Virus record (IMG/VR): IMGVR_UViG_3300007640_000016
Coordinates: 1-37,230 of that record
Direction: 5' to 3' (one strand)
Origin: a virus
Length of the DNA stretch: 37,230 bases
Each line of letters begins with the position of its first letter. Position 1 is the first letter of the stretch. Shown here piece by piece: positions 1 through 37,230 of this stretch. Below the pieces are notes generated by a model, which was given only the letters and a program-made list of their open reading frames with translations, ran no database searches and was not told where the DNA came from. The position numbers and the translations under genes were made by a program.

Positions 1-123
1 ATCCAGTTCGCTTAGAATCCTTGCAGCTTCCTCGGGAGAAAGTTCGTCATATTCCTCGATCTCAACCCGCTTTTGATCGTCCCAATATCGTTTGATGTAT
101 CCAGTCTTTTGAAACAGCGCGTC
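1..123. repeat. Left copy of 123-bp terminal direct repeat
   Basis: These bases are identical to 37108-37230. The repeat lies inside the portal gene and the reading frame is kept when the copies are superimposed. That is what an assembler leaves when it closes a circular or circularly permuted molecule, so the unique length is about 37,107 bp. A real short terminal repeat of that size is possible but would have to fall by chance inside the portal gene. Confidence 0.95.
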
Positions 124-483
124 AGTGATCCATGAGTAAAGCACCATGAACCCGTTGTTTTCCTGTTGAAATATGTAATTGCAAACGTCGGTTTCTTGAA
201 CCGCTGCGTCAATGTCTTCCTCGCCCCGCGCCGTGAAGTCCACAACCCGGTCCCCGCCGAAGAATATGTCCATCAGTTCAGGCTTGATGCTTTCAATGGT
301 GTCGCGAATGGTGGTGTCCACAATCTGCGAACGGCCCTCAACCTCATCGCCGTACTTCTTGCCAAGATAGCGCTTCATTAACTGCGAACGCTCTGAGCCT
401 ACGGTGCCATTGAGGCCACCCGAAGCGTTCTGTTGCAGCCCGTGCAGCAATGCTTCCAAGGCGTCTGTTTTCATTTTTGCCAT
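1..483 (-). CDS. Portal protein, N-terminal part (gene continues across the join at 37107)
   Basis: This is the first 161 codons of the portal gene, whose remainder is at 35497-37107. The ATG at 483-481 overlaps the TAA of the upstream ADP-ribosyltransferase-like gene (TAATG), which suggests coupled translation. An in-frame ATG three codons later is an alternative start. The encoded N-terminus begins MAKMKTDALE and is rich in charged helices, with a DIFFGGDRVV segment and aromatic stretches near residues 98-130, as in portals of short-tailed phages. Joined to the right-end part the protein has 697 residues, close to the 725 of the P22 portal. Portals form the dodecameric ring at the special capsid vertex through which DNA is packaged and ejected. 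Confidence 0.85.
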   Translation of the reverse strand, partial: MAKMKTDALEALLHGLQQNASGGLNGTVGSERSQLMKRYLGKKYGDEVEGRSQIVDTTIRDTIESIKPELMDIFFGGDRVVDFTARGEEDIDAAVQETDVCNYIFQQENNGFMVLYSWITDALFQKTGYIKRYWDDQKRVEIEEYDELSPEEAARILSELD

Positions 484-2369
484 TAATACTGCCTGTCGCC
501 CATTGTCATCGGTTGGTTGTATGCGCCTGCGCCCAGTAGCCCAAGGCCACCCACCCCAGCCGATAGGTTCTTGAGGTGCTTTAGTCGTGGATCAAATAGA
601 GCATAGCGGCTGCGGATATTGGTGGGGTCAAAAACAAACCTTTCATTAAACATGGGAAAATCCACCCCGTCATAATTAGATAACCCATCCGCCGTTGGCA
701 TATCTTCTGGAAGGTCCATAATGTCTACCTCGTCAGCATAATTGCCACGAGTCCGCACAGGAATTACAGACGGGTTTCCATTGCTTAATGACGGGTTAAA
801 TTCTGGCCTGTTTTGAGCGTACCAACTTCCCTCGTTGGAATCTGGTGTTACTGAAATTCCGTCTAAATCTATCTCGTCGTGAGGGTAGATGTTGAAATGG
901 CGTTTCCCGCCGCGCTGTGTGCCATGATAGAAATTCTGCCTATCAAACCCGCCATCGCTTGCCCGCGCCATCCGTGACGCCTCATCAACCGGCAAATCGT
1001 AGTTGTTATACAAATACGTCGGATCAGCAGCAGCCCGCATTTCCTCGGTGACTTCAGAGCCTCGGCCCGCCTTGAGTAAGTCTAGTACGTCTTGGGCTTG
1101 TCCTCGTGCGGTTTTCTCGCCGTTCTTGCTGAGAATTTGCGCTTGCTTGTCGTTGAATAGAACGTAGTTGCTTGTACCGCCATCAGCGCCTCGTGAACCT
1201 TGATCCAGGTAGCGAATGCCGGGAATGCCTGCCTCGCGTAGTCTGTCGCTGGAACCCTTTTTATCAGACGGGTCAAGACTTCTAAGCTTGAAGCCCTCCA
1301 TGATGTCCTGCCCGCGAGCCTCCAAGTCACCCCGGCGGCTTGCTTTCTCCATTTTCCTCAATAACCAAGTCGCGTCTTCTGAGGCTTTCTGATATTCAAC
1401 GCTTCCCGGCTGTGCGTCAAGTGTTTTAAGCAAGGCGTCGTCGTACTCGGCTGCTGCATTATTGTATGCCGCAACATCTTCATCACTAAAGCCAAGCGCA
1501 CGCCGCACTGACGGCTGATCAATGACCCTATTATCCCAATCAAGGAAGTCCTCGGCGTTGGCGTCTATGTTGACTTCGTAGAGGTGGCCTTTGGGCAGAT
1601 CAGCGTCGAATGGCTTGTATGAACCATCCTTTATAGCGTTGTAAAACTCTAACCTGCGGCCCGTTGGAATGTTTGCCCCGTCGCCATCTAAAACTTTTAG
1701 CGCCTGCTTCTCGCCGCCGTGATGGCGGACTAGGCTTGCCGCATATTCCGCCGCTGGTGCGTTTGCATAATTGTCAACGGCGGTTGGGCCACTAACGCCG
1801 GACGTTAAACCGTCCCTATAGCTTTCCGCCGTTTCCCTCGCCCCGCCGAAATACCCGCCTTGCCCGTAAGCCTGTGCGCCCTCGCCCTTACCCATGTTCT
1901 CGTTGAAATTAAACCGATCAAAGTCGTGCGGTGATCCATGCCACGCTTTAAACCCGCCACTTTCATTCGCAACCATGCCGCCCGCGTGCGTTGCAGCCTT
2001 GCGAGCGCCCATACTAATACCCGTGAATGCGTCAGTAAGCCCCGCCGCTATATCGTCGGAATACCGAACGCCCGCAACAGGAGCCACGAACGAAGCCATG
2101 TTGCTTAACGTGCGCCCACCAGCCGCCAACTTATCCCAGCCCTGCACATTAGGATCAAGCACCTGATCCATGTTCACCATGCTTTCACCAATATCAGTCA
2201 TCGGGTTCATCATGTCGCCGAACTTGGCAACGCTGTTTATGCGCTCGCCAGCGGGGCCGAAATAATACCGCAGTTGTTCTTGCAGTGCGGCGTCTTTCTC
2301 GTTCAGCCATTGCCGATTGCCCTGACGCCAAGCGTTGAACCTGTCGCCCATCGATATACCTTCGTTCAC
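483..2369 (-). CDS. Virion-region protein with two ADP-ribosyltransferase-like domains
   Basis: 628 residues, between terminase large subunit and portal. Residues about 142-413 match the ART-PolyVal type (ADP-ribosyltransferase in polyvalent proteins): AWHGSPHDFDRF at 142-153 with candidate catalytic His144, GEGAQAYG at 162-169, GGYF at 171-174 with candidate Tyr173, and the closing GIPGIRYLDQGSRG and NYVLFND segments at 381-407. A second, shorter ART-like unit follows: FYHGTQ at 480-485 (His482), GISVTPD at 504-510, WYAQN at 516-520, and FVFDPTNIRSRYALFDP at 578-594, a tail motif known from these proteins. The first 135 residues are helical and resemble virion proteins. The GTG at 2369 overlaps the terminase stop by four bases; an ATG at 2351 with GAAGG seven bases upstream is an equally good start. 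Probably carried in the particle and possibly injected to modify host targets (inference). Activity and third catalytic residue are unproven. Confidence 0.75.
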   Translation of the reverse strand: MNEGISMGDRFNAWRQGNRQWLNEKDAALQEQLRYYFGPAGERINSVAKFGDMMNPMTDIGESMVNMDQVLDPNVQGWDKLAAGGRTLSNMASFVAPVAGVRYSDDIAAGLTDAFTGISMGARKAATHAGGMVANESGGFKAWHGSPHDFDRFNFNENMGKGEGAQAYGQGGYFGGARETAESYRDGLTSGVSGPTAVDNYANAPAAEYAASLVRHHGGEKQALKVLDGDGANIPTGRRLEFYNAIKDGSYKPFDADLPKGHLYEVNIDANAEDFLDWDNRVIDQPSVRRALGFSDEDVAAYNNAAAEYDDALLKTLDAQPGSVEYQKASEDATWLLRKMEKASRRGDLEARGQDIMEGFKLRSLDPSDKKGSSDRLREAGIPGIRYLDQGSRGADGGTSNYVLFNDKQAQILSKNGEKTARGQAQDVLDLLKAGRGSEVTEEMRAAADPTYLYNNYDLPVDEASRMARASDGGFDRQNFYHGTQRGGKRHFNIYPHDEIDLDGISVTPDSNEGSWYAQNRPEFNPSLSNGNPSVIPVRTRGNYADEVDIMDLPEDMPTADGLSNYDGVDFPMFNERFVFDPTNIRSRYALFDPRLKHLKNLSAGVGGLGLLGAGAYNQPMTMGDRQY

Positions 2370-3700
2370 GACATCGTTCCCAAATTGCGCCGTATAGGCT
2401 CGCTGCTCGCCTTGCGACGTGTCATGTGCGGGAATAACTCAGTGAACGCCCACACCAACGCATCAACGCGATCAGGCGACCAGCCTTGAGCCTTGCGATC
2501 AAAGTCAGTGGTGAACGTCGTCATCTGGTTTTCCAAATCCTCAAACATTCCCTCGTGAAATATCTTGCCGCGTTCGTATAGTGCCGCCACAGGCTCGGCC
2601 CTCGTGAACTTGCCGCGTGTCGCATGTACTAACTTAACCGGCACGTCGGCCCGTTGCGCCCTGATAACGCTCGCCACCATATCGCCACCCTGGTTGGCCT
2701 CGGCCACTATCAAGTCAGCGTTAAACTCATCGTATAATGCAATTGCCCGCCGCGCCCAATCTTCGGGGCGATACTTGCCGCTGTCGTCTGCCAGCACATA
2801 GCCAATTGCGTCCCGTATTCCAGCAACAATTATCCCTGTCTCATCCGAACCCGGCGTGTTTGTGATAGCCGGATCAACGGCAACAACAATGCGCTGCAAG
2901 TCTGGAACGTTCTGTGTTTTGTGGATCATCTTGCGCCGCCACAGCGCGTCCTCAACGTCCTCAATGTATTCGCCGCTTAGAAACCGCTTCCTTGCGCGGG
3001 CCGGTAGCGCCTCAAGATCAGCAATATAGTCGCCAGACAGGTTGGCCAGGTTATCGTATGGGTTAACAATTTCAAAACCAAACTGGTCAGGGTTTAGTTT
3101 GCTTTCATCCTCGGGATCAATCAAGTCTTGCCAGACTTTGTATGTCCAGTGTTGCCGTGTGGTGGGATTTAGATCGCAGTAGAACTTCTGCGGCAGCACA
3201 TCGCCATCATTGTCCAGCACCACTTGCGCCAGACGTGAGCGTAGTAGCGTGAATGCAGCCCATCGAACCTCGCTTGCCTCGTTAACAAAAATCGAAACGT
3301 ATTCATTGCCGAGCAATTTCTCCATTGCCTTCGGATCGGATATGCCGCCCACCCATATTTCCGCCCCATTATAAAGCGTCAGATAGCCAAAGACCTCGTT
3401 GTTTGTGTATGTCAGGCCGGGAAAGCATGTGCGTATCACTACGCTTAGAGTAGCCAGGTTGCCCCGCATAATGGCCGAACGAGCGCTAGAAGCCTCTTGC
3501 CTGACAATTAGGTGCTTTGAATTAGGCGCACGCAAGGCCCGCGTGATAATGGCCCAACAGGTTAGAAATGTCTTGCCGGAACGACTACCTCCGTAGAGCA
3601 GGCAGAACCGGGCTGGACTGGCGAACAACTTTAATGCCTTCACCTGACCGGGGTTTAAGTTGTCCCACGGCTTGCCTTCTACAATAGCGCCTTGGATCAC
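2366..3700 (-). CDS. terL: Terminase large subunit
   Basis: 444 residues, the normal size for the ATPase-nuclease motor that packages DNA into the prohead. Walker A is GGSRSGKT at residues 37-44. The Walker B segment VSIFVNEASE lies at 135-144 with the acidic Glu141. The C-terminal RNase H-like nuclease shows VAVDPA with Asp276, VAEANQGGD with Glu334, and DRVDALVWA with Asp410 and Asp413, the usual three acidic positions. It follows the putative small subunit with a four-base overlap and overlaps the ADP-ribosyltransferase-like gene by four bases, so the three are one leftward transcript. The protein would dock on the portal during packaging. Whether packaging is headful or site-specific cannot be told from the sequence. 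Confidence 0.95.
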   Translation of the reverse strand: MIQGAIVEGKPWDNLNPGQVKALKLFASPARFCLLYGGSRSGKTFLTCWAIITRALRAPNSKHLIVRQEASSARSAIMRGNLATLSVVIRTCFPGLTYTNNEVFGYLTLYNGAEIWVGGISDPKAMEKLLGNEYVSIFVNEASEVRWAAFTLLRSRLAQVVLDNDGDVLPQKFYCDLNPTTRQHWTYKVWQDLIDPEDESKLNPDQFGFEIVNPYDNLANLSGDYIADLEALPARARKRFLSGEYIEDVEDALWRRKMIHKTQNVPDLQRIVVAVDPAITNTPGSDETGIIVAGIRDAIGYVLADDSGKYRPEDWARRAIALYDEFNADLIVAEANQGGDMVASVIRAQRADVPVKLVHATRGKFTRAEPVAALYERGKIFHEGMFEDLENQMTTFTTDFDRKAQGWSPDRVDALVWAFTELFPHMTRRKASSEPIRRNLGTMS

Positions 3701-3972
3701 AGGCTTTTAGCCATCGGGTGCATAAAAATGGTTATACCTGCTTCGCCATCAATCTGCGTTGGCAAGACTTTCCCGACGAGCGTCATAAACGCGACCGGGT
3801 TTTCATTTGCTTGCTGCGTTAGGTAGCCTACACGCCCATCTGGGTGAGCATTAGCAGCGGCTTGCAAGATTTCGTCCTTTAGGAGCGCATTTATTTTGTT
3901 TGGTACGCCCTTTGGCCTGCCTTTGCCCCTATTGCCCGTATTGACGCCTACTTTAGGCTGTTCATTGGCCAT
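3697..3972 (-). CDS. Small basic DNA-binding protein, probable terminase small subunit
   Basis: 91 residues from the ATG at 3972, which has GGTG six bases upstream; a GTG at 3981 would add three residues. An AT-hook-like GKGRPKGVPNK segment is followed by a helical stretch (NALLKDEILQAA), the pattern of the DUF5681/small-terminase-like proteins that commonly precede terL. The stop overlaps the terL start by four bases. The expected role is to recognise phage DNA and load the large subunit. There is no clear helix-turn-helix and the length is short for a small terminase, so the assignment rests partly on position. Confidence 0.6.
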   Translation of the reverse strand: MANEQPKVGVNTGNRGKGRPKGVPNKINALLKDEILQAAANAHPDGRVGYLTQQANENPVAFMTLVGKVLPTQIDGEAGITIFMHPMAKSL

Positions 3973-4282
3973 TTGGTTCACCGTTCAGTTCTGTCGCGCT
4001 ATGCCATGCTCTGCGCTTAAACTCAAGGCTATCCTGGATAGCGCTGCGTTCACGCTTCAGGTTAGCGATGTCATTCTGTAGATGCTTAATGCGTCCTTCA
4101 AGAACATCGAAGTTCATTTCCTTTCTCAATTCCTTTAGGCGCTGGGCGACCCCTTGAGTGGCCCCCTTTAATATCGTTTCAGGTATCCGATTGCTGGGAA
4201 TTGTGACGGTGCCAGTGTATCTGCCTGCCTCTAAGTTTATATCTACATGAATATCAGTAATATCAAATATTAAGTCGTCCAT
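3962..4282 (-). CDS. Hypothetical protein with beta-rich N-terminus and coiled coil
   Basis: 106 residues, ATG at 4282 preceded by AAAGGGAC. Residues 1-35 alternate hydrophobic residues (ITDIHVDINLEAGRYTGTV), as in a beta-sheet. Residues 40-95 are a long charged helix with heptad spacing (coiled coil), ending in a polar tail. The 3' end overlaps the small-terminase candidate by 11 bases, placing it in the packaging operon. I do not recognise the family. A role in packaging or as an accessory DNA-binding factor is only suggested by position. Confidence 0.7.
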   Translation of the reverse strand: MDDLIFDITDIHVDINLEAGRYTGTVTIPSNRIPETILKGATQGVAQRLKELRKEMNFDVLEGRIKHLQNDIANLKRERSAIQDSLEFKRRAWHSATELNGEPNGQ

Positions 4283-11450: not shown

Positions 11451-11997
11451 CAGGTGCGCCCGTCATTTCGTTAACTGTTGCTAATAGTTTCAAGTTATCA
11501 ACGCACCAATAAACCATGCCGCTAGGGCCGTGCCTGTCTGAAGTGTGGCTTTCAACTTTCTTTAGAATTTTAATATTGCGGCCAAACAACCCAGTCGGGC
11601 AGGCTCTCGGGCATTCGTCATATTTCAAATCCCGCGCATCAGGCTTGTCGCTTGGGTGATAAAACAACAGCCAAACAGGTAATTGCGTGGCGCTAGAAAC
11701 TTCTAAATATTCTTTGTAATGCCTTTTATCAATTCCAGTTGTCCAACGTTCTGAAATCCTATGCCACGAAAAACAGGTTTTGTGCTTTGCCTCAATCCAT
11801 ACTACATTACCGGCCTTGAACGCCAACAGGTCAGGCAGCACCAAGTCGCCAGACGCGGCAAACATTTGCGGGCCTTTACCAGTGTGGTGTTCTATTTGGT
11901 ATGCTGGGAATACAGAATGCCCCTTGCCCTGCAACCATTTGGAAATAATGCTTTCGCCAATCTGCCCGGTTTTTAGGTTTTGATCAAAATTACCCAT
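11440..11997 (-). CDS. PD-(D/E)XK nuclease
   Basis: 185 residues from the ATG at 11997, which overlaps the methyltransferase stop by eight bases; an upstream ATG at 12054 would add 19 residues. The nuclease core shows GQIGES with Glu15, LVLPDLLAF with Asp56, and VWIEAKHKT with Glu69 and Lys71. The later CPRACPTG and the C-terminal half are not recognised. Substrate unknown; a restriction-like or repair endonuclease acting next to the adenine methyltransferase would make a self-protecting pair, but it may equally be a recombination nuclease. Confidence 0.7.
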   Translation of the reverse strand: MGNFDQNLKTGQIGESIISKWLQGKGHSVFPAYQIEHHTGKGPQMFAASGDLVLPDLLAFKAGNVVWIEAKHKTCFSWHRISERWTTGIDKRHYKEYLEVSSATQLPVWLLFYHPSDKPDARDLKYDECPRACPTGLFGRNIKILKKVESHTSDRHGPSGMVYWCVDNLKLLATVNEMTGAPDGI

Positions 11998-13081
11998 TCC
12001 TAAGAACCACCCCGAATTGCTTAAATGCGGCTTCGAATTTATCAACATCATCACCAGCGTAGATTATGGCCTGTCCTTGCAGTGGTGCGCCAGGCTTTCC
12101 ATCGGAGTCTAAAAACTTAACTCGGCCTTTGTGAAAACAAACAGCCGAAGACACCGACAATAGTTCTTGGAACCACGCCGTTTCTGTCGCGTTGTTAACC
12201 AGTACAATGCCCGTTGAACCTGCCGTTATTGATTCCGCATACTTAGCCGCGAACTGGCCCATCAAGGGTTGTGCATATGGCGGGTTCATCCAGATACGAC
12301 ACACCGGCCAATCGCCCGCCAACCCATCATCTTCTTCTGTTAAGAAGCAATCAGCCTTCACCGTCTGGTTTGCTATTTCTGACGACGCCGGGTCTAAATC
12401 AAACCCACCAAGCACACCCCGTGCAGCTTCGATTATATTGCTCGGCGTGTACCATTCGTTGTTGCCGGTGTTGTTTTCAACATGCGGTTTTCTCGCCTTG
12501 GTTTTTTTGTCCTTGGCTTTTTTTGCTGCCGCTTTGGCTTCCTTGGCTTCGGCGTCGGCCCGCTCCCTTTCTTCGGTTGCTAATTTGGCCTTTTTCTCTG
12601 CCGCAGCCTTTGCCTTGGCATTCTCAGCGGCTTCGACTTCCGCCTTGGCTTCGGCTTCAGCGTTTGCCTTGGCCTTTGCCAGCCTGTTAGCCTCAACAGC
12701 CGCGATCCGCGCTTCTTCTGCCAGTCTGGCGTTCTCAGCGTCTTTCCATTTTGAATGCCAGCCGCGAACGGTTTTTGTGTTGGTGTTGGCTTCTTGTGTT
12801 GCTTTGAAATCAAGCGGATCATCAGCGGCCCACATAGCGGCTTCACGCTCTTTTTGTTCGGTGTCGGGCAAGTTGCCTTTCACCCATTTGCCAAACAATT
12901 CGTCGCTCCGAAATAACTTGCGCCCTTCATTCAGCGCAGCGCCGTAAATCAACCAGCCCTCAACGGCGCGGCCTTCACCGTCTGCGACAATTGACAGCCC
13001 GTGCAGCGCATCGTTTGCGATCAGTTCAAGCATTAATGCGCTATTGTGTCCAATGCTGGTTTTCGTCGCGGCTTCCATCAT
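11990..13081 (-). CDS. N6-adenine DNA methyltransferase with long Ala/Lys/Glu linker
   Basis: 363 residues. Residues 205-363 are a phage N6-adenine methyltransferase (Dam-like): WYTP at 210-213, FDLDPASS at 227-234, IWMNPPYAQPL at 263-273 with the NPPY catalytic motif, and IVLVNNATE. Residues 1-95 form a separate helical head (GWLIYGAALNEGRKLF and LFGKWVKGNLP) resembling DUF3102-like modules. Residues 115-198 are an almost pure Ala/Lys/Glu/Arg helix, a TolA-like rigid rod or basic DNA-tethering arm. The target site is not known. Methylation could protect phage DNA from restriction. AGGAGG is before the ATG at 13081. The linker is low in complexity and shadow ORFs lie opposite it. Confidence 0.85.
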   Translation of the reverse strand: MMEAATKTSIGHNSALMLELIANDALHGLSIVADGEGRAVEGWLIYGAALNEGRKLFRSDELFGKWVKGNLPDTEQKEREAAMWAADDPLDFKATQEANTNTKTVRGWHSKWKDAENARLAEEARIAAVEANRLAKAKANAEAEAKAEVEAAENAKAKAAAEKKAKLATEERERADAEAKEAKAAAKKAKDKKTKARKPHVENNTGNNEWYTPSNIIEAARGVLGGFDLDPASSEIANQTVKADCFLTEEDDGLAGDWPVCRIWMNPPYAQPLMGQFAAKYAESITAGSTGIVLVNNATETAWFQELLSVSSAVCFHKGRVKFLDSDGKPGAPLQGQAIIYAGDDVDKFEAAFKQFGVVLRNG

Positions 13082-13999: not shown

Positions 14000-14148
14000 A
14001 AACCCCGCAAACAAACTACCGCCCCCCGCAGCCAATTCGCACACTGCGCCCGATAGCATTTGCGCTGGCTGTTGTTATGCTGGCCGTTGTCGGCGCTCAT
14101 ATCTGGGGCGTGGCCATGACTTATATTAACCCATGTGGAGCGTGCTGA
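13996..14148 (+). CDS. Small single-pass membrane protein
   Basis: 50 residues, ATG overlapping the previous stop. A Pro/Arg-rich cytoplasmic start (TNYRPPQPIRTLRPI) leads to one membrane segment (AFALAVVMLAVVGAHIWGVA) and a C-terminus with two Cys (NPCGAC). Function unknown. It was below a 60-residue cutoff. Confidence 0.6.
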   Translation: MKTPQTNYRPPQPIRTLRPIAFALAVVMLAVVGAHIWGVAMTYINPCGAC

Positions 14149-14189
14149 TGGATTATTTCAAAGAAGAAGAAATGAGGAAACTGAAATGA
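14148..14189 (+). CDS. Possible 13-residue coupled peptide before Erf
   Basis: ATG overlaps the previous stop (TGATG), and its own stop overlaps the Erf start (ATGA). It reads MDYFKEEEMRKLK. The double overlap suggests a translational relay rather than a functional peptide. Confidence 0.25.
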   Translation: MDYFKEEEMRKLK

Positions 14190-14911
14190 GTGAAGTTGCA
14201 AAGATTGACGCACCGATGATTTCTATCGATCCTATGGTTTCAATGATAGAACGCGTGGCCTTGGACCCCAACGCCGACATTGAAAAGCTGGAACGTATGC
14301 TGCAAATGAAAGAACGCATGGATAGCGCTGCTGAAATGCGGGCATTTAATGATGCGTTTGCCAAATGTCAGCGGGAGATTCCAACCGTTCTGAGAAACAA
14401 AAGAAACCAACAAACAAATTCAAACTATGCAGACTTGGCCGCAATTGAATCAGCGGTAATGCCAACAGTGAACGCGCACGGGTTTTCAATGCGGTTCTTC
14501 CCGACGGCATCTCCGCTTGAAGGACACTATGGCGTTGACTGCGTTGTGTCACACGAATGTGGCCACACGGAGACACACCACGCCGATATTCCTGCCGACG
14601 CTACGGGAATGAAGGGAACAGCCAATAAGACAGCCACCCACGCATTCGGCTCCACAATGTCTTATGGACGGCGCTATTTGCTCGCAATGATATGGAATAT
14701 TGCAACGTCAGACGATGACGGTAACGGCGGGTCGCAGTCGAAGTCTATAACGTCAGATCAATTCGTTGAACTGCAAAATCTCATTGAGGATAGTGGCGCA
14801 GATTTAGATAAGTTCCTATTAGCTTTCAGGGCCACTTCACTTGAAGAGTTCCCGTTGCAGAAACTCACTCATGCAAAATCTATGCTTGAAAAAAAGGCGG
14901 CAGCTAAATGA
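14186..14911 (+). CDS. erf: ERF-family single-strand annealing protein
   Basis: 241 residues from the ATG at 14186, preceded by GAGGAAAC; an earlier in-frame ATG would lack a good site. The ERF core runs from about residue 40 to 175: AEMRAFNDAFAKCQREIP (50-66), NYADLAAIESAVMP (80-93), GFSMRFFPT, VSHECGHTETH, KTATHAFGSTMSYGRRYLLAMIW (149-170). The C-terminal 60 residues are helical (VELQNLIEDSGADLDKFL). P22 Erf anneals complementary strands and circularises or recombines phage DNA. It is followed with a four-base overlap by an exonuclease, giving a Red-like pair. Confidence 0.9.
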   Translation: MSEVAKIDAPMISIDPMVSMIERVALDPNADIEKLERMLQMKERMDSAAEMRAFNDAFAKCQREIPTVLRNKRNQQTNSNYADLAAIESAVMPTVNAHGFSMRFFPTASPLEGHYGVDCVVSHECGHTETHHADIPADATGMKGTANKTATHAFGSTMSYGRRYLLAMIWNIATSDDDGNGGSQSKSITSDQFVELQNLIEDSGADLDKFLLAFRATSLEEFPLQKLTHAKSMLEKKAAAK

Positions 14912-15525
14912 ATGAACAGGGAACAGAAGATTGGTTCGCAGATCGTCTTGGTAAAGTCACCGCCAGCAGAATTTCGGATGTGATGATGGCCAAAACAACG
15001 GCAGGGTATCAGAATTACCTCGCACAGCTTGTATGCGAGCGCCTGACGGGCATTCCGACTGAAACCTTTACCAGTGCCGCCATGCAGCACGGGACAGACA
15101 CTGAGCCGCAAGCCAGAGCCATGTACGAATTAGAAAGTGGTCTGATCGTGGAGGAAGTTGGTTTTATAGGTCACCCGTTAATCCACAATTCAGGCGCAAG
15201 CCCCGATGGGTTGGTTGGCGATGATGGCCTGGTGGAGATCAAATGCCCGCAGCAGAATAACCACATCAAAACGCTGTTGGGTGCCAATGTGGCGAAGAAT
15301 TACAACCTGCAAATGCACTGGCAAATGGCCTGCACAGAACGCAAGTGGTGTGACTTCGTTTCATTCAACCCAACGCTGCCAATGGAAATGCAGTTGCACA
15401 TTCAGCGCGTGGATTATGACGCTAAACTAGGCGATGACATTGCCGACGCAGTAGGCGCATTTTTGATTGTCGTGGAAGAAACTGTAGCCGATTTGCAGTC
15501 ACGATACATGAAAGAGGCCGCATAA
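14908..15525 (+). CDS. YqaJ-type (lambda exonuclease-like) recombination nuclease
   Basis: 205 residues. PD-(D/E)XK core with Glu66 (HGTDTEPQAR), Asp100 (GASPDGLV), and Glu110 and Lys112 in GLVEIKCPQQ. The helix NYNLQMHWQMACT (131-143) is the usual YqaJ closing helix. It should resect double-strand ends 5' to 3' to give the tails used by Erf. Length is normal. The start overlaps the erf stop (ATGA) and its stop touches the NinB start (TAATG). Confidence 0.9.
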   Translation: MNEQGTEDWFADRLGKVTASRISDVMMAKTTAGYQNYLAQLVCERLTGIPTETFTSAAMQHGTDTEPQARAMYELESGLIVEEVGFIGHPLIHNSGASPDGLVGDDGLVEIKCPQQNNHIKTLLGANVAKNYNLQMHWQMACTERKWCDFVSFNPTLPMEMQLHIQRVDYDAKLGDDIADAVGAFLIVVEETVADLQSRYMKEAA

Positions 15526-17426: not shown

Positions 17427-17593
17427 AATGCACCCAACAAGGCTTGCAGCCATTCAGTACCCGCCGTGAGGATGTACAGGACGGCAGCGACGACGTAGCC
17501 AGCCACGGTGGCCAGTTTGCTCTCTTTGCCGCTCCTGTGGATCAGGAAGGCGGCACCGATGATGAAGGCGATAATTACGATAATGTCAGTCAT
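17423..17593 (-). CDS. Holin-like small two-pass membrane protein
   Basis: 56 residues from the ATG at 17593, with AAAGGAG correctly placed; longer in-frame starts lie inside the endolysin gene. Two membrane segments (IIVIIAFIIGAAFLI and AGYVVAAVLYILTAG) with a charged loop (HRSGKESK) between them match a small class II-like holin, which would open the inner membrane for the endolysin encoded next. The overlap with the endolysin stop is four bases. Confidence 0.65.
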   Translation of the reverse strand: MTDIIVIIAFIIGAAFLIHRSGKESKLATVAGYVVAAVLYILTAGTEWLQALLGAL

Positions 17594-18120
17594 TTCTTTG
17601 CTCCTTTGAAAAGTTTCGCTAAGATGTCCATGACTATGGCCCACAACCCCCCGTTTTTTGCCCCGCCACTGGCCTTCGTGGGTGTTTGGGCAGCACGGCG
17701 CACCGCAAGCAGCCTGTCGGCGCGGTAGGGCTTGTCAGAAACCTTGTTGCCTTGGTTGCCGCCGCGAACAACGATAGTGCCGCGATCAGGCTTGACGTAG
17801 AATGCCACATGCCCCTGCCAGCCGTCTTTATCCCCCCGCCAGAATACGCACACATCGCCGGGGATGGCGTCATCGATGTCAACTGGATCGCCCCAGTCCA
17901 GATAGGAACGGGCGTTTAGTTTTCCGGTTCCCTGCACGCCGATAGAGGCCAGCACAGAACCAACGAAAGCAGCGCACCAAGGCGTTTCGTCGTCATTCAC
18001 CCAGTCATTGCCAGTGGCGGCGAACATTTTCAGCACAGCCGGGTTGTGTTTAGCCCCTGGCCATTCTTCAAGGCCGAGCATTTTGCCCGCTGCTTCAAAT
18101 GATGCTTTGCTTAAATTCAT
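17590..18120 (-). CDS. Endolysin, TIGR02594/NlpC-P60-like peptidase
   Basis: 176 residues. The family pattern is clear: KHNPAVLKMF, DDETPWCAAFVGSVL with catalytic Cys49, TGKLNARSYLDWGD (65-78), PGDVCVFWRG, GHVAFY with His104, and RGGNQGN with Asn122. The expected activity is cleavage of peptidoglycan stem peptides. A C-terminal amphipathic/hydrophobic helix (GLWAIVMDILAKLFKGAKK) after a Gly/Lys linker may help it reach or disturb the membrane. No signal peptide, so it needs a holin. It is in one operon with holin and spanins. Confidence 0.85.
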   Translation of the reverse strand: MNLSKASFEAAGKMLGLEEWPGAKHNPAVLKMFAATGNDWVNDDETPWCAAFVGSVLASIGVQGTGKLNARSYLDWGDPVDIDDAIPGDVCVFWRGDKDGWQGHVAFYVKPDRGTIVVRGGNQGNKVSDKPYRADRLLAVRRAAQTPTKASGGAKNGGLWAIVMDILAKLFKGAKK

Positions 18121-24281: not shown

Positions 24282-24437
24282 ATGGATACGGATATTTTTA
24301 GAGCGATTATCGTCGCCAACGTCTTAACAGCGAGTGCTATTTATGGGCTTTGGCGTGTGTCAAAAAACGAACGAGACACCAAAGGGATTATTTGGTTAGT
24401 ATCTGCGGGGCTTATTGTGGCCCTGATATCCTACTAG
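24282..24437 (+). CDS. Opposite-strand small two-pass membrane protein
   Basis: 51 residues on the plus strand within the otherwise leftward late block. Two membrane segments (IFRAIIVANVLTASAIYGLW and GIIWLVSAGLIVALISY) are joined by a charged loop (RVSKNERDTK). It fills a 176-base gap between two late genes and overlaps the 3' end of one by 26 bases. TTGAAG (24248-24253), 16 bases, and TATGTT (24270-24275) form a possible promoter whose start point would fall at the ATG, making it leaderless. No ribosome-binding site. Could be a holin-like or exclusion protein. Confidence 0.45.
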   Translation: MDTDIFRAIIVANVLTASAIYGLWRVSKNERDTKGIIWLVSAGLIVALISY

Positions 24438-25953
24438 CCGCGCCGGACATCAGTGATTGAGCGAGCAAATTGTACTTTTCCGCCGTTACTGCTGGTAGTT
24501 TTTGGCCCATCTTGACTAAAGCCGCTGCCAATTCCGCATTTCTTGTCTGCATTCCTGTTGCCAATTTACGAGCAATGCCGCCCGTCGCCATAGTTCCGAG
24601 TCCAGCAACAGCACCAGCGGTGGGGCCACCAATGGCATTCCCGATAAGAAACGGAATGCCGCCGCCCATCCCCGCCGAAACAATGCCCGTAGGCGCAGCT
24701 TTTCCTATATCCCTCGCCAAATTCTCAACCTTTCCACCTCTAGCCACACGACTAATAGCGGCTATTTGATCGGCTGAATAACCCGGCAATTTTTCCTTAA
24801 TAATCATTTTCTCCAAACGTCTAAATTCTTTTCGCAATGCGTTTTCAAACCCCGAACCCGTAAACTGCCCAGCGGTGCTGCCAGCCAATTCTATAGTTTT
24901 TTCGATTTCTTTACCCCTCATGGCACGAGCATAGATGGCGTTGCCCTCTTTAATTTGTGGGGCCAATGGTTCCATAACACGGTCAAATTCTTGGATAATC
25001 CTACGCCCAATCCGCCCCTCATTACCGGGGCTGCGTGCGGCATCCGCTAACATGATGCGGACGTTTTGCATTTGTTGGGGCGTCATTGTGCTATCAGCAA
25101 AGTCGTTTAGCATATCAATTGCGTCAGTGACCTTTGTATATCCCTTGGGAACAGCGCCACTTGGCGACACCAGCCCTTCACCCTGTAAAATTTGAATAGC
25201 GCGGTCGGAAACCCCTTTGGTTTGTCTGCCGCTCGCGGTTATGCCCGCCGCCGTGGCCTCGTCATACTTTGCGCCGGCTTGTGAAACTAGGTCATCTACA
25301 GTTGGGGCTGCGGCTGTGAATGCCTTTTTACCGGTCTTCGCTGCACTACCCCGCACAAATTCACCAATAAGCCTCGAAATGCCGGGTGCGGCCAGCCCTA
25401 GCCCGGCACCTAAGACTGCTGATTTAAGTCCCGAATCAACGCGGTTATCCTTTCCGCCCTCGCCCTCCATGAACCCGTAAACACCAGCACCAAGGCCACC
25501 AGAAACCGCACTAACTGCCGACTTAGCCGCCAAACCTTTAGCCGCCTGAACGCCCTTCACGGCCAAGCCTCCCGGCAATAACGCAGGCGCAAGAACAGAA
25601 GCAAACGACGCAACCGGGTTTTCCTCGGCAAATTGATCCTGTTGCCCACGATAATGGTCGCGCCGATCCGCATAATCACCCCGGCCAATAAGCTGGTCAG
25701 CGACACCCGCCGCCTCATCACCCACAAGGCCCAGAGTCATACTTTCCCCAGCGTTGTTTAGAAATGTCCCCACCTTTTCGCCAAAGTTCATTGTTGCCGG
25801 GTCATTATCGCCAAGAAGGTTTTCTTTGATGGTTTGCCCCCAACCTTTGGGTTCTGTCGCTTCGGGTTCTGTCGCCTCTGGGCCAGATACCTGGGCGGTT
25901 AGCTTCCGCTGCGCTTCGGCTAATGCGAGCGCCTTTTTTTGCTCAATGTTCAT
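24412..25953 (-). CDS. Large internal-virion/ejection protein candidate
   Basis: 513 residues from the ATG at 25953, which overlaps the previous stop (ATGA); an in-frame upstream start adds 13 residues. The sequence is Ala/Gly-rich with long amphipathic helices and Gly-rich hydrophobic stretches (VSGGLGAGVYGFMEGEGG, and VSAGMGGGIPFLIGNAIGGPTAGAVAGLG near 440-475). Such stretches are seen in podoviral ejection proteins that form the DNA channel across the envelope. A basic helical region (RKEFRRLEKMIIKEKLPGY) lies between. It sits with two other large helical genes, the place of gp7/gp16/gp20 in P22. No lytic-transglycosylase motif was seen. Confidence 0.6.
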   Translation of the reverse strand: MNIEQKKALALAEAQRKLTAQVSGPEATEPEATEPKGWGQTIKENLLGDNDPATMNFGEKVGTFLNNAGESMTLGLVGDEAAGVADQLIGRGDYADRRDHYRGQQDQFAEENPVASFASVLAPALLPGGLAVKGVQAAKGLAAKSAVSAVSGGLGAGVYGFMEGEGGKDNRVDSGLKSAVLGAGLGLAAPGISRLIGEFVRGSAAKTGKKAFTAAAPTVDDLVSQAGAKYDEATAAGITASGRQTKGVSDRAIQILQGEGLVSPSGAVPKGYTKVTDAIDMLNDFADSTMTPQQMQNVRIMLADAARSPGNEGRIGRRIIQEFDRVMEPLAPQIKEGNAIYARAMRGKEIEKTIELAGSTAGQFTGSGFENALRKEFRRLEKMIIKEKLPGYSADQIAAISRVARGGKVENLARDIGKAAPTGIVSAGMGGGIPFLIGNAIGGPTAGAVAGLGTMATGGIARKLATGMQTRNAELAAALVKMGQKLPAVTAEKYNLLAQSLMSGAASRISGPQ

Positions 25954-27476
25954 TCCCATAGCGCCCTGCTTTCTGGTGGCATAAGGTTCCAAAGTTCCTC
26001 AGAAACGCCGGGAGGAGGGTTTTCACCGGAGTTATTGTCTGGATTCATCTCATCCACATAAGCCGCTCCCGCGCCCGATCCGACGCGTATGCCCTCGATG
26101 GCGTTTTCTCTGTTCTTACGCTTTTGATCAATTACCGGCTGCTGATCACCTGGAACCGGGAAGTATTGCAAGTTTCCGTTTTCAAATTCTGTTTCGGAAA
26201 TCACAGCGCCCGACTCCCTCCGAAGGATGGCGTTTATAAAGTCCCGGCGGGCTTGGTCAAACTGTTGGAACTCCGAGTCTCTCGCAAGATTTCCAAGACC
26301 CATTGGCACTTTCTCCAGGCTCTGCTGACCCCACCGCAAGCCTTGGTCTTCGAATTTATCCAGTATTTTATTTGAGGCTTGGGTGCGGATTAAGTAACCG
26401 GTGTTTTTACCGGCATCAACGGAAAGGTCGGTAGGCATTGCGCCGTTCCTACCGCCTATCTGCACTAAAGGTTTGCCCGTGACCGGATCATATACAGTTG
26501 TGCCGTCACCACGCTTGGCGTCTGCCATTGCCTTTGCAAACTCAAACCTGTCCATTGGCGGTTCGCCGCGCTGGTTGCTTGCTTCTACATACCTGCCATA
26601 TTCATCGGCAGGCGCGGCGGGCTTATTAGCCGCATCGCGTGCCTGCTGCATTTCCCACATAAGTTTAACGTTCGCTTGCCCTTCTTTGGAAAGCCCTGAG
26701 TCTGGACCTTGGGACCATAAATATTCTTCGGCAGTCAGTCTTCGTGGCCCAGAGTTCTGCGCCTGCGCACCGAACGAAAGAACATCTGGCGGGACGGGTT
26801 GTCCAAATTCAGAATCCGCGTTTGATTGCCGTGCGTTTTGCGGTTGCCCAAATTGCGGTTGCCCAAATTGCGGTTGTGCGTTTTGCGGTTGTGCGTTTTG
26901 CGGTTGCGGTGCTGGTGTCCGCGCAGACCAAGGGTCCATCGGTTCTTGCCCCTGCATCGGAATGTCAGGGCTAACACCATCAAAGCCGTAAAACGGTTGA
27001 GGCGCTGGTGCTGCGCTCATAACATTTGGCGGCTGGTTGGCTTGCTGGTTAAGAGGCAGTCCAAAGGATAAAACCTCATCTGAAGTCCCGCCCGCAGGGA
27101 ACCCGCCTTGCCCGCCGCCACCAGCGCCACCAGTCATAAAGTTTTGAAAGGCTACTCGCTGCGCACGTTTTTCCGCTTCTTGGCGGGCAGTGTTGTTTTG
27201 TGTTATTGATCTGGCGCGGCCTTGAGCGTCTAACTGCATCAAGTATTGCGGCTGTTGTTCAATGGGCAGCATGTCAAGAATAGCTCGCTGTTGACCTGAG
27301 ATATTCAGCCGCCCCATCAAGCTTTCAATTTTGGCTTTGCGTTGATCGCGCTCCAGCGCATCGCGATAGTTCTGGAGAATCCCCGACGGATCACGGCCCT
27401 GAAAGCCCGTACCCATAGCCATTAATCCGGTGCCCCATCTTTGCAAATTGGCACGGCGTTCGTCAGTCATAGCCAT
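25950..27476 (-). CDS. Internal virion protein with Gln/Pro/Asn repeats
   Basis: 508 residues. The helical start (NLQRWGTGLMAMGTGFQGRDPSGILQNYRDALERDQRKAK) and a C-terminal segment FDQARRDFINAILRRESGAVISETEFENGNLQYFPVPGD (about 405-443) match a domain common in phage ejection or DNA-transfer proteins, where R-R-E-S-G-A-x-I-S is the landmark. The middle is low-complexity, including five QNAQP/QFGQP-type pentapeptide repeats encoded by a 15-bp repeat (26832-26906). Probably ejected with the DNA. Its stop overlaps the next gene. Confidence 0.65.
   Translation of the reverse strand: MAMTDERRANLQRWGTGLMAMGTGFQGRDPSGILQNYRDALERDQRKAKIESLMGRLNISGQQRAILDMLPIEQQPQYLMQLDAQGRARSITQNNTARQEAEKRAQRVAFQNFMTGGAGGGGQGGFPAGGTSDEVLSFGLPLNQQANQPPNVMSAAPAPQPFYGFDGVSPDIPMQGQEPMDPWSARTPAPQPQNAQPQNAQPQFGQPQFGQPQNARQSNADSEFGQPVPPDVLSFGAQAQNSGPRRLTAEEYLWSQGPDSGLSKEGQANVKLMWEMQQARDAANKPAAPADEYGRYVEASNQRGEPPMDRFEFAKAMADAKRGDGTTVYDPVTGKPLVQIGGRNGAMPTDLSVDAGKNTGYLIRTQASNKILDKFEDQGLRWGQQSLEKVPMGLGNLARDSEFQQFDQARRDFINAILRRESGAVISETEFENGNLQYFPVPGDQQPVIDQKRKNRENAIEGIRVGSGAGAAYVDEMNPDNNSGENPPPGVSEELWNLMPPESRALWE
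26832..26906. repeat. Five 15-bp tandem units in an internal-virion gene
   Basis: Five consecutive 15-base units in the pattern A-B-B-A-A, where A and B share the second half (TTGCGGTTG), encode QNAQP- and QFGQP-type pentapeptides on the minus strand. Exact unit identity suggests recent slippage or selection for repeats. Confidence 0.8.
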
Positions 27477-27507: not shown

Positions 27508-28236
27508 TCACTTCATACCGGCCAGTCCAGTCAATAAACCGCCGCCGCCCGTCGCCAAAGAACCAACACCCATGAGCGCCTGTGCCCAGTCGAAAGGTCT
27601 TGTTGTGGTGCTGCCCATGCCGCCCATAGGCCCGACCAGTCCAGCGTATTCCCTCAAGGCGTTTAGGTCCACGTTCTCACCTTCATAATATCTTTGCATA
27701 TCAGCATTGATATTCTGCTGGTTGTAGGCGTCTGTCATTTGCCCGCCAGCAACAGCGTTTCGGGCGTCTGAATATTCCATGCCTTGCAGTTGTGGGGCCA
27801 TGCCAATTGTTTGCAACTGTCGGTTTTGTGCCTGATTATAGGCATCGTATTCCAACCCGCCTAACCCTTCAGCCATACCTCTTGAAATATTCTGTTGAAC
27901 CAGGCCGTTATCCATTGCGCCACCGCCAAAGGAAGACATAAGCCTGGATTGCACATCGTCGCCAACCGTGTTGCGTATCTGATCAAAGTCACGATATGGA
28001 TTGTTCTGCAAGCTGTCCAAATATGCCGCTTGCGCTGGCTGTGTAACCGCCGATCCGCCCGTCATCTGATCAATGCCGCCCCGTGTGGCCGCGCTCTGAT
28101 CAGCGACACGCTGGCCCCCGTAGGGATCAACGCGCAATCCTCCGCTTTCGCGCATGGCGTCGGCGTCCCCGAGAACGTTTCTCAGGGAGCCTTGTGCAGG
28201 ACGCCAAGGCTCGGTTGTTGTTTCCTGACTACCCAA
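27508..28236 (-). CDS. Internal-virion or tail-associated protein
   Basis: 242 residues. Gln/Asn/Gly-rich, helical, with QNPYRDFDQIRNTVGDDVQSRLMSSFGGG near 77-105 and QAQNRQLQTIGMAPQLQGM at about 134-152, a pattern seen in small internal proteins of podoviruses. It ends with a Gly-rich hydrophobic segment (ALMGVGSLATGGGGLLTGLAGM), suitable for membrane insertion. Family not named. It overlaps the GNAT-like gene by eight bases. Confidence 0.6.
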   Translation of the reverse strand: MGSQETTTEPWRPAQGSLRNVLGDADAMRESGGLRVDPYGGQRVADQSAATRGGIDQMTGGSAVTQPAQAAYLDSLQNNPYRDFDQIRNTVGDDVQSRLMSSFGGGAMDNGLVQQNISRGMAEGLGGLEYDAYNQAQNRQLQTIGMAPQLQGMEYSDARNAVAGGQMTDAYNQQNINADMQRYYEGENVDLNALREYAGLVGPMGGMGSTTTRPFDWAQALMGVGSLATGGGGLLTGLAGMK

Positions 28237-35496: not shown

Positions 35497-37230
35497 TCAT
35501 ACGGATTCGTTGCCGCTATCTTGTGCCGCGTCCATTCTATCAAAGGCCAGTTTTTGGCGGCTAACGCCAAGTTCCTCTGCCTTGAAGTCACGTTCCCGGT
35601 CATCGCGCATCAACACATCGAGGTGTTTGGTTTCCAATTCCCGGCCCCTAAGAGCCAAGCCCATCTTGTCGTATTGAGATTTCATCATAATTTTCATTTG
35701 CTCAAGCTGTGCATTCTGCGCGTCAGACTGCGCTTTCGCCTGCACCTTGCTGGATTCGATTTCCGCCAGTATCATCGTCGGATCGGGTGGCGGTTGTTTT
35801 TCCGCCAGCATTTTATCAACGTCCTCGGGATTCGGCAGGAAGTTCGTGGTGTCCTTGAACCCGCTCAGTTCCAGTATTTTCTTCAGCGTGTGGTGAACCT
35901 TTTCATAGCCCAGAATACCGCGCTCAAAGCCTTCCTTCTGCTCTGCCAGAATGCGCTCCAACCTTGCCAATTGAATATCCTTATCACCCGTCCCCAAACC
36001 AACAGAAACCGTAATATCCGAGCGGTGCCGCCATGTGCGCGGGTTTACAGGCACATATTTGTTATTTAACCGAATGCTCAATTCCTTCATTGGCCCAGCC
36101 CGCAAGTCACGGTGCATGTGAACAAACAAAGACTTATAGCCTGTTTCGGCGAAAATGCGGGCAATCATCAGAATCTTTTTCTGTGACGCCGACATGATCA
36201 TTTTAATGCCGCCCTTGGTCTTGTTCAGGCTGTCGGCATCTGTGCCCTGGTTGTATCTCGTAACACCCGTGCGCTTTTCTTGCAGGTTATCCACATACTC
36301 TATCGCCTGCAAAGACTGGCCCGCCGTTTGTGGAATGGGCAAATAGGAAAGGCTCTGCACCCCGCCGGGAATGCGGATCGTGCGGCTCATGCCATTATAT
36401 TGCAAATCTTCTATTGTGCTTTTAGTCATGCTGTCTTCGTCAACAACAACATCGGGGTTGTTCGAACCAACGATATTATCAACCAATTGCCGTGATAAAA
36501 CCGTTTTCAAACGCTGCAAGTCCTCAACCAGTTCAGCCACCGACAAGCCATAGTGCCGGTGCGGAATTGGCAGCGGGCAAAGAGCCTCAAACGGCGCGTC
36601 GGTTACGAAGTCTATGGCCGGTTTTTTATTACGCCGTAGAATGCCGCCCTCTGTGCCGCCGGTGAATACCCGCAACTGTTCAGCAATGCCGTCGCCGTCA
36701 TAGTCGCAAAGAACATAGTTCTCGTAAACCAGCACCTCGCGCATACTGTCGTCGTTCACCGCCGTACCTGCGTCAGTCAGCCCTTGATCGTTGTGCCGCG
36801 TGTTGGCTTCTTCGCTTTCAAGCTGAGAGTTGTATTCTGGCAGCGCCTCGACTTCCTTGCGATCAAACCCCATCGCAATGAGTTCGCTAACCGTGGCCGA
36901 ACGCTTGTGTGCAACAAACGGACACCCGACGAAATCAACCCGCGTCCATTGCGGATGCACGATAAGTTCCTCGGGTGGCACGTTTACAATGCGGTATTTC
37001 TTTTCGGTGCTGGTTTTCCTGATCTTGATGTAAAGCGGCGTAACTTCACCCGTTTCCTCATCAATACCGCCAGCACGTCCAAGCACATCAACGCTGTCGG
37101 ACGTTTCATCCAGTTCGCTTAGAATCCTTGCAGCTTCCTCGGGAGAAAGTTCGTCATATTCCTCGATCTCAACCCGCTTTTGATCGTCCCAATATCGTTT
37201 GATGTATCCAGTCTTTTGAAACAGCGCGTC
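35497..37230 (-). CDS. Portal protein, middle and C-terminal part (N-terminus at 1-483)
   Basis: The frame is open from 37230 down to the TGA at 35499-35497. The portion to 37107 joins codon 161 at position 1 to give a 697-residue portal. In this part are VPPEELIVHPQWTRVDFVGCPFVAHK, a region with YDGDGIAEQLRVFTGG, PHRHYGLSVAELVEDLQRLKTVLSRQLVDNIVGSN, and GVTRYNQGTDADSLNKTKGGIKMIMSASQKKILMIARIFAETGYK, the helix-rich core of P22/SU10-type portals. The C-terminal 130 residues are a coiled coil (KVQAKAQSDAQNAQLEQMK), perhaps the barrel. It is not a bona fide truncated gene; the ends come from how the circle was cut. Confidence 0.9.
   Translation of the reverse strand, partial: DALFQKTGYIKRYWDDQKRVEIEEYDELSPEEAARILSELDETSDSVDVLGRAGGIDEETGEVTPLYIKIRKTSTEKKYRIVNVPPEELIVHPQWTRVDFVGCPFVAHKRSATVSELIAMGFDRKEVEALPEYNSQLESEEANTRHNDQGLTDAGTAVNDDSMREVLVYENYVLCDYDGDGIAEQLRVFTGGTEGGILRRNKKPAIDFVTDAPFEALCPLPIPHRHYGLSVAELVEDLQRLKTVLSRQLVDNIVGSNNPDVVVDEDSMTKSTIEDLQYNGMSRTIRIPGGVQSLSYLPIPQTAGQSLQAIEYVDNLQEKRTGVTRYNQGTDADSLNKTKGGIKMIMSASQKKILMIARIFAETGYKSLFVHMHRDLRAGPMKELSIRLNNKYVPVNPRTWRHRSDITVSVGLGTGDKDIQLARLERILAEQKEGFERGILGYEKVHHTLKKILELSGFKDTTNFLPNPEDVDKMLAEKQPPPDPTMILAEIESSKVQAKAQSDAQNAQLEQMKIMMKSQYDKMGLALRGRELETKHLDVLMRDDRERDFKAEELGVSRQKLAFDRMDAAQDSGNESV
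37108..37230. repeat. Right copy of 123-bp terminal direct repeat
   Basis: Identical to 1-123 and coding in the same portal frame. See the left copy for interpretation. Confidence 0.95.

What the first reader, a model, noticed from the sequence alone, without database searches (positions are those of the whole stretch)
483..2369. Double ADP-ribosyltransferase-like protein encoded between terminase and portal
One protein carries a full ART-PolyVal-type domain (HGSPHDFDRF, GEGAQAYGQGGYF, then GIRYLDQGSRG) and a second compact ART-like unit (YHGTQ, GISVTPD, NIRSRYALFDP) behind a helical head. It lies in the virion-assembly operon, not in the early block. T4 uses injected and early ARTs to modify host RNA polymerase and other proteins; here a structural-gene neighbour may deliver a modifying enzyme with the DNA. 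Two dissimilar domains in one chain could mean two targets, or one active and one structural copy. The first domain has GGYF where relatives usually have GLYF.
Basis: partly seen in the sequence, partly recalled or inferred. Interest (0 to 1): 0.72.

Follow-up and report, generated by a model that had tools for sequence, protein, structure and literature searches.

The report
Phage head-gene protein with two ARTs
A small tailed phage carries, between its DNA-packaging motor gene and its portal gene, a protein with one apparently intact and one degenerate ADP-ribosyltransferase domain; it belongs to a widespread modular family that phages probably inject into bacteria, and in relatives the second domain has been swapped out like a cartridge.

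Summary
The ORF is on the minus strand, 628 codons from GTG (probably 622 aa from ATG 2351), and overlaps terL and the portal gene. It has two ART-fold units behind a helical head. Left-out-window profiles score ART1 at about 200 bits, adaptor plus ART2 at 142 and the head at 82; shuffles reach at most 9.

ART1 is an intact ART-PolyVal (H-Y-D type) domain: H144, Y173, D389, S392 and R393 are conserved in essentially all 72 sequences, and the GGYF change leaves the tyrosine. ART2 keeps H482 but has Ser506 where 36 of 41 aligned sequences have an aromatic residue, so it is probably inactive.

The protein is modular: constant head, exchangeable middle domain (ART, GNAT, ParB-like or LPD23), fixed adaptor, variable ART2 core, fixed C-terminal motif. 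In sibling contigs the ART2 core is replaced while the rest is identical. Terminase lies within 2.5 kb upstream in 29 of 39 evaluable loci.

Best reading: a late-made, virion-packaged polyvalent effector whose ART1 modifies host molecules on entry; ART2 is a variable recognition or binding module. Packaging and activity are inferred. Multi-ART polyvalent proteins near terminase and portal are already published; the swappable second core is the new part.

The parts
483..2369 (-). whole ORF, 628 codons from GTG; probable true start ATG 2351 (622 aa) behind Shine-Dalgarno-like GAAGG
1950..2327 (-). constant N-terminal head module, residues 15-140, shared with 28 other distinct proteins that carry different payload domains
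   Evidence: left-out profile 82 bits against at most 9 in shuffles
1119..1949 (-). ART1, residues 141-417: ART-PolyVal / Tox-ART-HYD2 type domain with helical insertions
1938..1940 (-). His144 of ART1 (strand 1), 71 of 71 sequences
1851..1853 (-). Tyr173 of ART1 (strand 2, GGYF), 72 of 72
1191..1205 (-). Asp389, with Ser392-Arg393, of ART1 (LDQGSR, directly after a strand), 72 of 72
933..1118 (-). LK adaptor, residues 418-479 (GRGSEVTEEM...DLPVDEASRMARA), always found before ART2
633..932 (-). ART2 core, residues 480-579: His482 kept, Ser506 in place of the strand-2 aromatic residue; orphan core without a single-sequence relative among the collected proteins
555..632 (-). conserved C-terminal motif, residues 580-605 (FDPTNIRSRYALFDPRLKHLKNLSAG)
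486..554 (-). Gly/Leu-rich C-terminal tail, residues 606-628, low-confidence in the model
2366..3700 (-). terminase large subunit, overlaps the GTG of the ORF by 4 nt
3697..3981 (-). small protein upstream of terL (phrog_11043), likely small terminase by position
   Evidence: function inferred
1..483 (-). portal protein, N-terminal part; its ATG overlaps the stop of the ORF (TAATG)
35497..37230 (-). portal protein, remainder, across the contig junction

Best explanation
The gene encodes a late-expressed polyvalent effector that is packaged in or on the phage head with terminase and portal and delivered with the DNA. The head module (residues 15-140) and the C-terminal motif are the constant parts and probably serve packaging or ejection. 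ART1 (141-417) is the catalytic payload: it would use NAD+ to ADP-ribosylate a host molecule at the start of infection. ART2 (480-579), held between a fixed adaptor and a fixed C-terminal motif, has probably lost catalysis and acts as a fast-changing recognition, decoy or binding module. Shown: the two ART-type units, intact residues in ART1, loss of the aromatic residue in ART2, translational overlap with terL and portal, conserved gene position, exchange of the second core in relatives. Inferred: packaging, injection, enzyme activity, host target, role of ART2.
For: Left-out profiles: ART1 201 bits, ART2 with adaptor 142 bits, head 82 bits, shuffles at most 9. ART1 model pLDDT 87; best BFVD matches E 2e-14, several named ART-PolyVal or large polyvalent proteins. 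H144, Y173, D389, S392 and R393 essentially invariant in 72 sequences. ART2 model matches PARP, tankyrase, RES, ParT, KptA and toxin ART folds almost exclusively, though weakly (best E 0.02). Ser506 where 17 Y, 10 W and 9 F of 41 stand. Gene overlaps terL and the portal gene. TerL within 2.5 kb upstream in 29 of 39 adaptor-ART2 loci and 9 of 11 head-module loci; 32 of 63 downstream neighbours match virion structural family phrog_2941. phiGT1 gp5, a head-gene protein, has the same ART1. PMC5512222 and PMC9503650 place ART polyvalent proteins in this context.
Against: No virion proteomics could be read: the phiGT1 data are in Table S3 of PMC10386132, which was not readable here. No ART1 match to solved structures. 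Most ART1-only relatives lie elsewhere: 38 of 53 evaluable loci have no terminase nearby. The position alone does not separate packaging from late intracellular action. The window's own Pfam score is below the curated cut-off.
Confidence: 0.58

Rival explanations
1. The protein is made late and acts inside the infected cell without being packaged: it modifies host or phage proteins during assembly, or protects terminase and portal from host immunity that senses them.
For: Translational overlap with terL and portal gives late expression by itself. PMC9503650 names protection of the packaging apparatus as an alternative.
Against: The recurring head module joined to unrelated payloads (ART, GNAT, ParB-like, LPD23) looks like a delivery module.
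Confidence: 0.18
2. Both ART units are active and modify two different targets; ART2 uses a diverged active site.
For: ART2 keeps His482 and an Asp in YDGV (D567, shared with 11 of 41). Many relatives keep Tyr at the strand-2 position (17 of 41).
Against: Ser506 is unique among 41 sequences and the nearest double relative L088 has Thr there. No acidic residue is conserved in the third position of this group, so D567 is not convincing as catalytic.
Confidence: 0.12
3. Neither ART is used as an enzyme: the protein is a minor head or portal component and the ART folds are scaffolding.
For: Location between terL and portal; unusual Gly172 in ART1; ART2 degenerate.
Against: Complete invariance of Tyr173, Asp389, Ser392 and Arg393 across 72 otherwise diverged domains is what selection for catalysis leaves. 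Related phages such as Ssp-JY42 and A-4L have no gene of this kind between terL and portal, so it is not an essential head part.
Confidence: 0.1

Closest known systems
ART domains of polyvalent proteins (Pfam PF18760 ART-PolyVal; Tox-ART-HYD2 clade; Iyer et al. 2017, PMC5512222)
   Same: H in strand 1, Y in strand 2, D after strand 5 in ART1; several domains in one chain; multi-copy ARTs known (up to 12); terminase-portal phages
   Different: second ART lacks the strand-2 aromatic residue and sits between a fixed adaptor and a fixed C-terminal motif; the window's own Pfam score is below cut-off
Sulfitobacter phage phiGT1 gp5 (QLB38217.1)
   Same: helical head plus one ART1-type domain (32% identity, E 3e-25) encoded in the head-gene block
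   Different: one ART only; lies behind portal and gp4, not between terL and portal
Octadecabacter Antarctic DB virus 2 (OANV2) gp6 (URC15508.1)
   Same: adaptor, ART2 and C-terminal motif (33% identity over residues 423-602, E 3e-14), downstream of terL
   Different: ParB-like segment in place of ART1; Tyr present in ART2
IMG/VR 3300006916_005487 (L088)
   Same: same order: head, ART1, adaptor, ART2, C-terminal motif; Pfam ART-PolyVal 50 bits with two stretches
   Different: ART2 core only 24% identical although the C-terminal motif is 90% and the adaptor 74% identical
T4 Alt
   Same: injected ART encoded among late genes; works like the proposed role of ART1
   Different: R-S-E active site and another ART clade according to PMC5512222; not a relative by any search here
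Helicobacter jhp1044 polyvalent proteins (PMC5512222)
   Same: orthologous phage effectors with extensive domain mosaicism
   Different: PBECR RNase domains; whole domains rearranged rather than one core exchanged between fixed flanks

Membership tests
ART-PolyVal / Tox-ART-HYD2 (for ART1) | H (strand 1), Y (strand 2), D (strand 5) active site | tested here: met
   H144, Y173, D389 present; 71/71, 72/72, 72/72 in the alignment
ART-PolyVal / Tox-ART-HYD2 (for ART1) | sequence homology to the family | tested here: met
   201 bits with a left-out profile of relatives; 32% identity to phiGT1 gp5, itself ART-PolyVal at E 1e-6; L088 above the Pfam cut-off
ART-PolyVal / Tox-ART-HYD2 (for ART1) | Pfam PF18760 curated score (31.2 bits) on the window protein itself | tested here: not met
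   13 bits, E 0.18; a limit of the model rather than a biological feature
ART-PolyVal / Tox-ART-HYD2 (for ART1) | ART fold | tested here: met
   confident model whose best viral matches are ART-PolyVal proteins; PDB search uninformative because of helical insertions
ART-PolyVal / Tox-ART-HYD2 (for ART2) | H-Y-D active site | tested here: not met
   His482 kept, Ser506 for the aromatic residue, third residue uncertain
ART-PolyVal / Tox-ART-HYD2 (for ART2) | ART fold and homology | tested here: met
   Foldseek top hits nearly all ART superfamily but best E only 0.02; profile comparison with ART1 94%, E 1.4e-7; core alone above 5,000 shuffles
phage polyvalent proteins | two or more effector-type domains in one chain, in a terminase-portal phage | tested here: met
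   relatives exchange the middle domain for GNAT, ParB-like or LPD23
phage polyvalent proteins | packaged in the virion and delivered to the host | not testable with these tools
   context only
T4 Alt/Mod ARTs | R-S-E active site | tested here: not met
   ART1 carries H-Y-D
T4 Alt/Mod ARTs | ADP-ribosylation of host RNA polymerase after injection | not testable with these tools
   needs experiments

The most novel reading that the evidence does not exclude
A virion-delivered polymorphic effector system: constant head and C-terminal modules carry two exchangeable payload slots, and the conserved adaptor (DLPMDEASRMARA) and C-terminal motif serve as recombination joints through which phages swap ART-fold cores in an arms race with host defences or targets, so that one delivery chassis presents many different, partly non-enzymatic ART-fold binders.
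Probability: 0.3. Interest if true: 0.66.

Novelty: new variant of a known kind. Interest (0 to 1): 0.43.

Why it matters
Injected enzymes are how phages act before their genes are expressed, and few are known outside T4. This family offers a small, complete podovirus protein with a clear active site to test, close enough to isolated phages (phiGT1, OANV2) that virion proteomics and biochemistry are feasible. The replacement of the second ART core between otherwise identical proteins points to strong selection on what that core binds, so comparing the cores may reveal host targets or defences.

Tried and rejected
Single-sequence scan of IMG/VR with the whole protein: no relative; the portal likewise. 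A composite alignment of ART1-only and ART2-only proteins with the full protein merged the two domains; it was discarded and the domains were folded apart. PDB fold search with ART1 returned only helical bundles, because long helical insertions dominate, so it does not count against the fold. The PDB profile search with ART2 gave only weak diphtheria-toxin-fold hits (E 0.07), used as a fold hint only. Foldseek rank 7 for ART2, a cyanophage A4 ejectosome chain (E 0.13, rmsd 17.7), was followed to Anabaena phage A-4L: the two proteins checked there match no ART model in Pfam, so it was dropped. Conservation of the adaptor is partly an artefact of the search patterns; a second sample collected only by the C-terminal motif still had adaptor and ART2 in 63 of 65 real hits, the other two being cut off at contig starts, so the unit is real. 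A split or frameshifted pseudogene was rejected: the frame is open over 628 codons. Gradual divergence as the cause of core differences was rejected for L239/L318, where 362 preceding residues are nearly or fully identical. No relative with the full double architecture turned up in genome contigs, only ART1-type matches.

Full report
Observation. The window is a complete circular contig: its first and last 123 bases are identical and the portal gene runs across the junction. The gene order TerS-like, TerL, this ORF, portal, a small ORF, scaffold (phrog_3927), major head protein (phrog_1328) is that of a P22/SU10-type podovirus. The start codon is more likely ATG 2351 than GTG 2369, since GAAGG stands 7 nt before it. 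The stop overlaps the portal start in TAATG and the GTG overlaps the terL stop, so the gene is translated with the packaging genes.

Is it more than chance? Pfam sees only 13 bits and PHROG 873 matches residues 367-421 at E 2.8e-8. Profiles built from relatives without the window score 201 bits (ART1), 142 bits (adaptor plus ART2) and 82 bits (head), with shuffles at 9 or below. The ART2 core alone scores 13.8 bits, above 5,000 shuffles. The nearest full-length relative, L088, passes Pfam ART-PolyVal with 50 bits and two matched stretches. The two units are homologous to each other (hhalign 94%, E 1.4e-7).

ART1. A model from 72 sequences is confident (pLDDT 87) and its best viral matches are polyvalent and ART-PolyVal proteins. 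H144, Y173, D389, S392 and R393 are conserved in 71 or 72 of 72 sequences. The sample was collected by the motifs GEGAQAY and HGSPH, so conservation of the His is partly a selection effect, but Tyr, Asp, Ser and Arg lie outside those patterns. This matches the H-Y-D active site described for ARTs of polyvalent proteins (PMC5512222). Gly172 for Leu is found only here but leaves the Tyr.

ART2. A model from 41 sequences (pLDDT 77) finds PARPs, tankyrases, RES toxin, ParT, KptA and toxin ART folds at the top of the PDB list, none better than E 0.02. His482 is kept (35 of 41). At the strand-2 position relatives carry Tyr 17, Trp 10, Phe 9, Thr 4; only the window has Ser, and L088 has Thr. No acidic residue is conserved after the following strands; D567 in YDGV occurs in 11 of 41. 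ART2 is therefore probably not a normal transferase. This rests on sequence and a moderate model only.

Modular family. The head module occurs in 29 distinct proteins of the collection, joined to ART1, to adaptor plus ART2, or to both. The middle position is occupied by ART1, other ARTs, GNAT acetyltransferase, ParB-like or LPD23 domains in different members. In a sample collected only by the C-terminal motif, 63 of 65 real hits have adaptor plus ART2 and the other two are truncated. Pairwise identity within the ART2 family is 24% for the core but 65% for the C-terminal motif and 76% for the second half of the adaptor (the adaptor figure is partly inflated by the search patterns).

Exchange of the second core. 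Of 193 protein pairs with adaptors at least 80% identical, 142 have cores below 35% (many pairs share members, so this is not a count of events). In L239 and L318, from the same metagenome sample, about 362 residues including a first ART are identical but for a few residues at the very end, the core is about 22% identical, and the last residues are identical again. The DNA matches at 91% up to the core, not at all within it, and at 79% after it. L177 and L225 show the same. Between the window and L088, ART1 is 50%, the adaptor 74%, the C-terminal motif 90% and the ART2 core 24% identical. The window's core alone finds no relative among the collected proteins, while its adaptor and C-terminal motif each match more than 100. 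This is replacement rather than slow drift in the sibling pairs; for the window itself, drift is not excluded.

Gene context. Where at least 2.5 kb upstream was held, TerL lies within 2.5 kb upstream in 29 of 39 adaptor-ART2 loci and in 9 of 11 head-module loci, but in only 11 of 53 loci of ART1 without adaptor. At least 30 of 57 upstream neighbours match terminase families, and 32 of 63 downstream neighbours match virion structural family phrog_2941.

Mechanism. The best-supported reading is a late, virion-packaged, ejected effector: head and C-terminal modules for delivery, ART1 as NAD+-dependent modifier of a host molecule, ART2 as variable recognition or binding module. Delivery and chemistry are inferred from family and context. 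Published surveys already state that ARTs are the commonest modifying enzymes of polyvalent proteins, that they occur in several copies per chain, and that they lie near terminase and portal genes (PMC5512222; PMC9503650). Virion proteomics of phiGT1 exists (PMC10386132), but the table could not be read here; the OANV2 paper reports no virion proteomics in its main text.

Verdict. A real and well-formed member of the polyvalent ART effectors, ordinary in its location and enzyme type. The variant features are the degenerate second ART and its exchangeable core between fixed flanks. I read only passages of the two reference papers and searched an open-access library, so the novelty of the exchange pattern is provisional.

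Noticed in passing
window 1-123 and 37108-37230: Identical 123-bp ends: the contig is a complete circle of 37,107 bp and the portal gene is split by the linearisation.
   Followed up: yes
L239:3282-5078 and L318:3866-5596: Sibling contigs from one sample whose proteins are nearly identical except for a completely different second ART core: direct evidence of cassette exchange.
   Followed up: yes
L177, L182, L183, L225, N-terminal parts before the adaptor: By eye, several of these carry a further, different ART-like domain (VYHGG...PFFVTPD), each followed by a similar NAS-K-S-x-GLL ending, as if modules end in a common tag.
   Followed up: partly
L187:50-1522, L167:4621-5958, L301:4207-5463: The same slot holds a domain with LHE-x-QH-x-IQ-x-REGFARG; LPD23 matches three proteins of this set. 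It could be a metallopeptidase-like payload.
   Followed up: partly
window 27508-28236 (-): Similar to a DNA ejection protein family (phrog_4287, E 1e-11), so this phage probably also ejects P22-type proteins.
   Followed up: no
window 11990-13081 (-), 14135-15525 (+): DNA methyltransferase (phrog_111) and an Erf-like annealing protein next to a RecE-like exonuclease; the recombination pair could promote the mosaicism seen in the family.
   Followed up: no
window 24412-25992 (-): A second protein matching a 'major head protein' family (phrog_21712, E 2e-74) although the major head protein proper is at 33329-34279; its role is unclear.
   Followed up: no
window 17590-18120 (-): Matches the lysozyme end of a baseplate hub/tail lysozyme family (phrog_1259, E 4e-31): probably the endolysin of this podovirus.
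   Followed up: no
L084:6540-12464 (vir555, host given as Methanomicrobiales): ART1-type domain inside a 1,974-aa protein directly downstream of internal virion protein genes in a virus assigned to an archaeal host.
   Followed up: no
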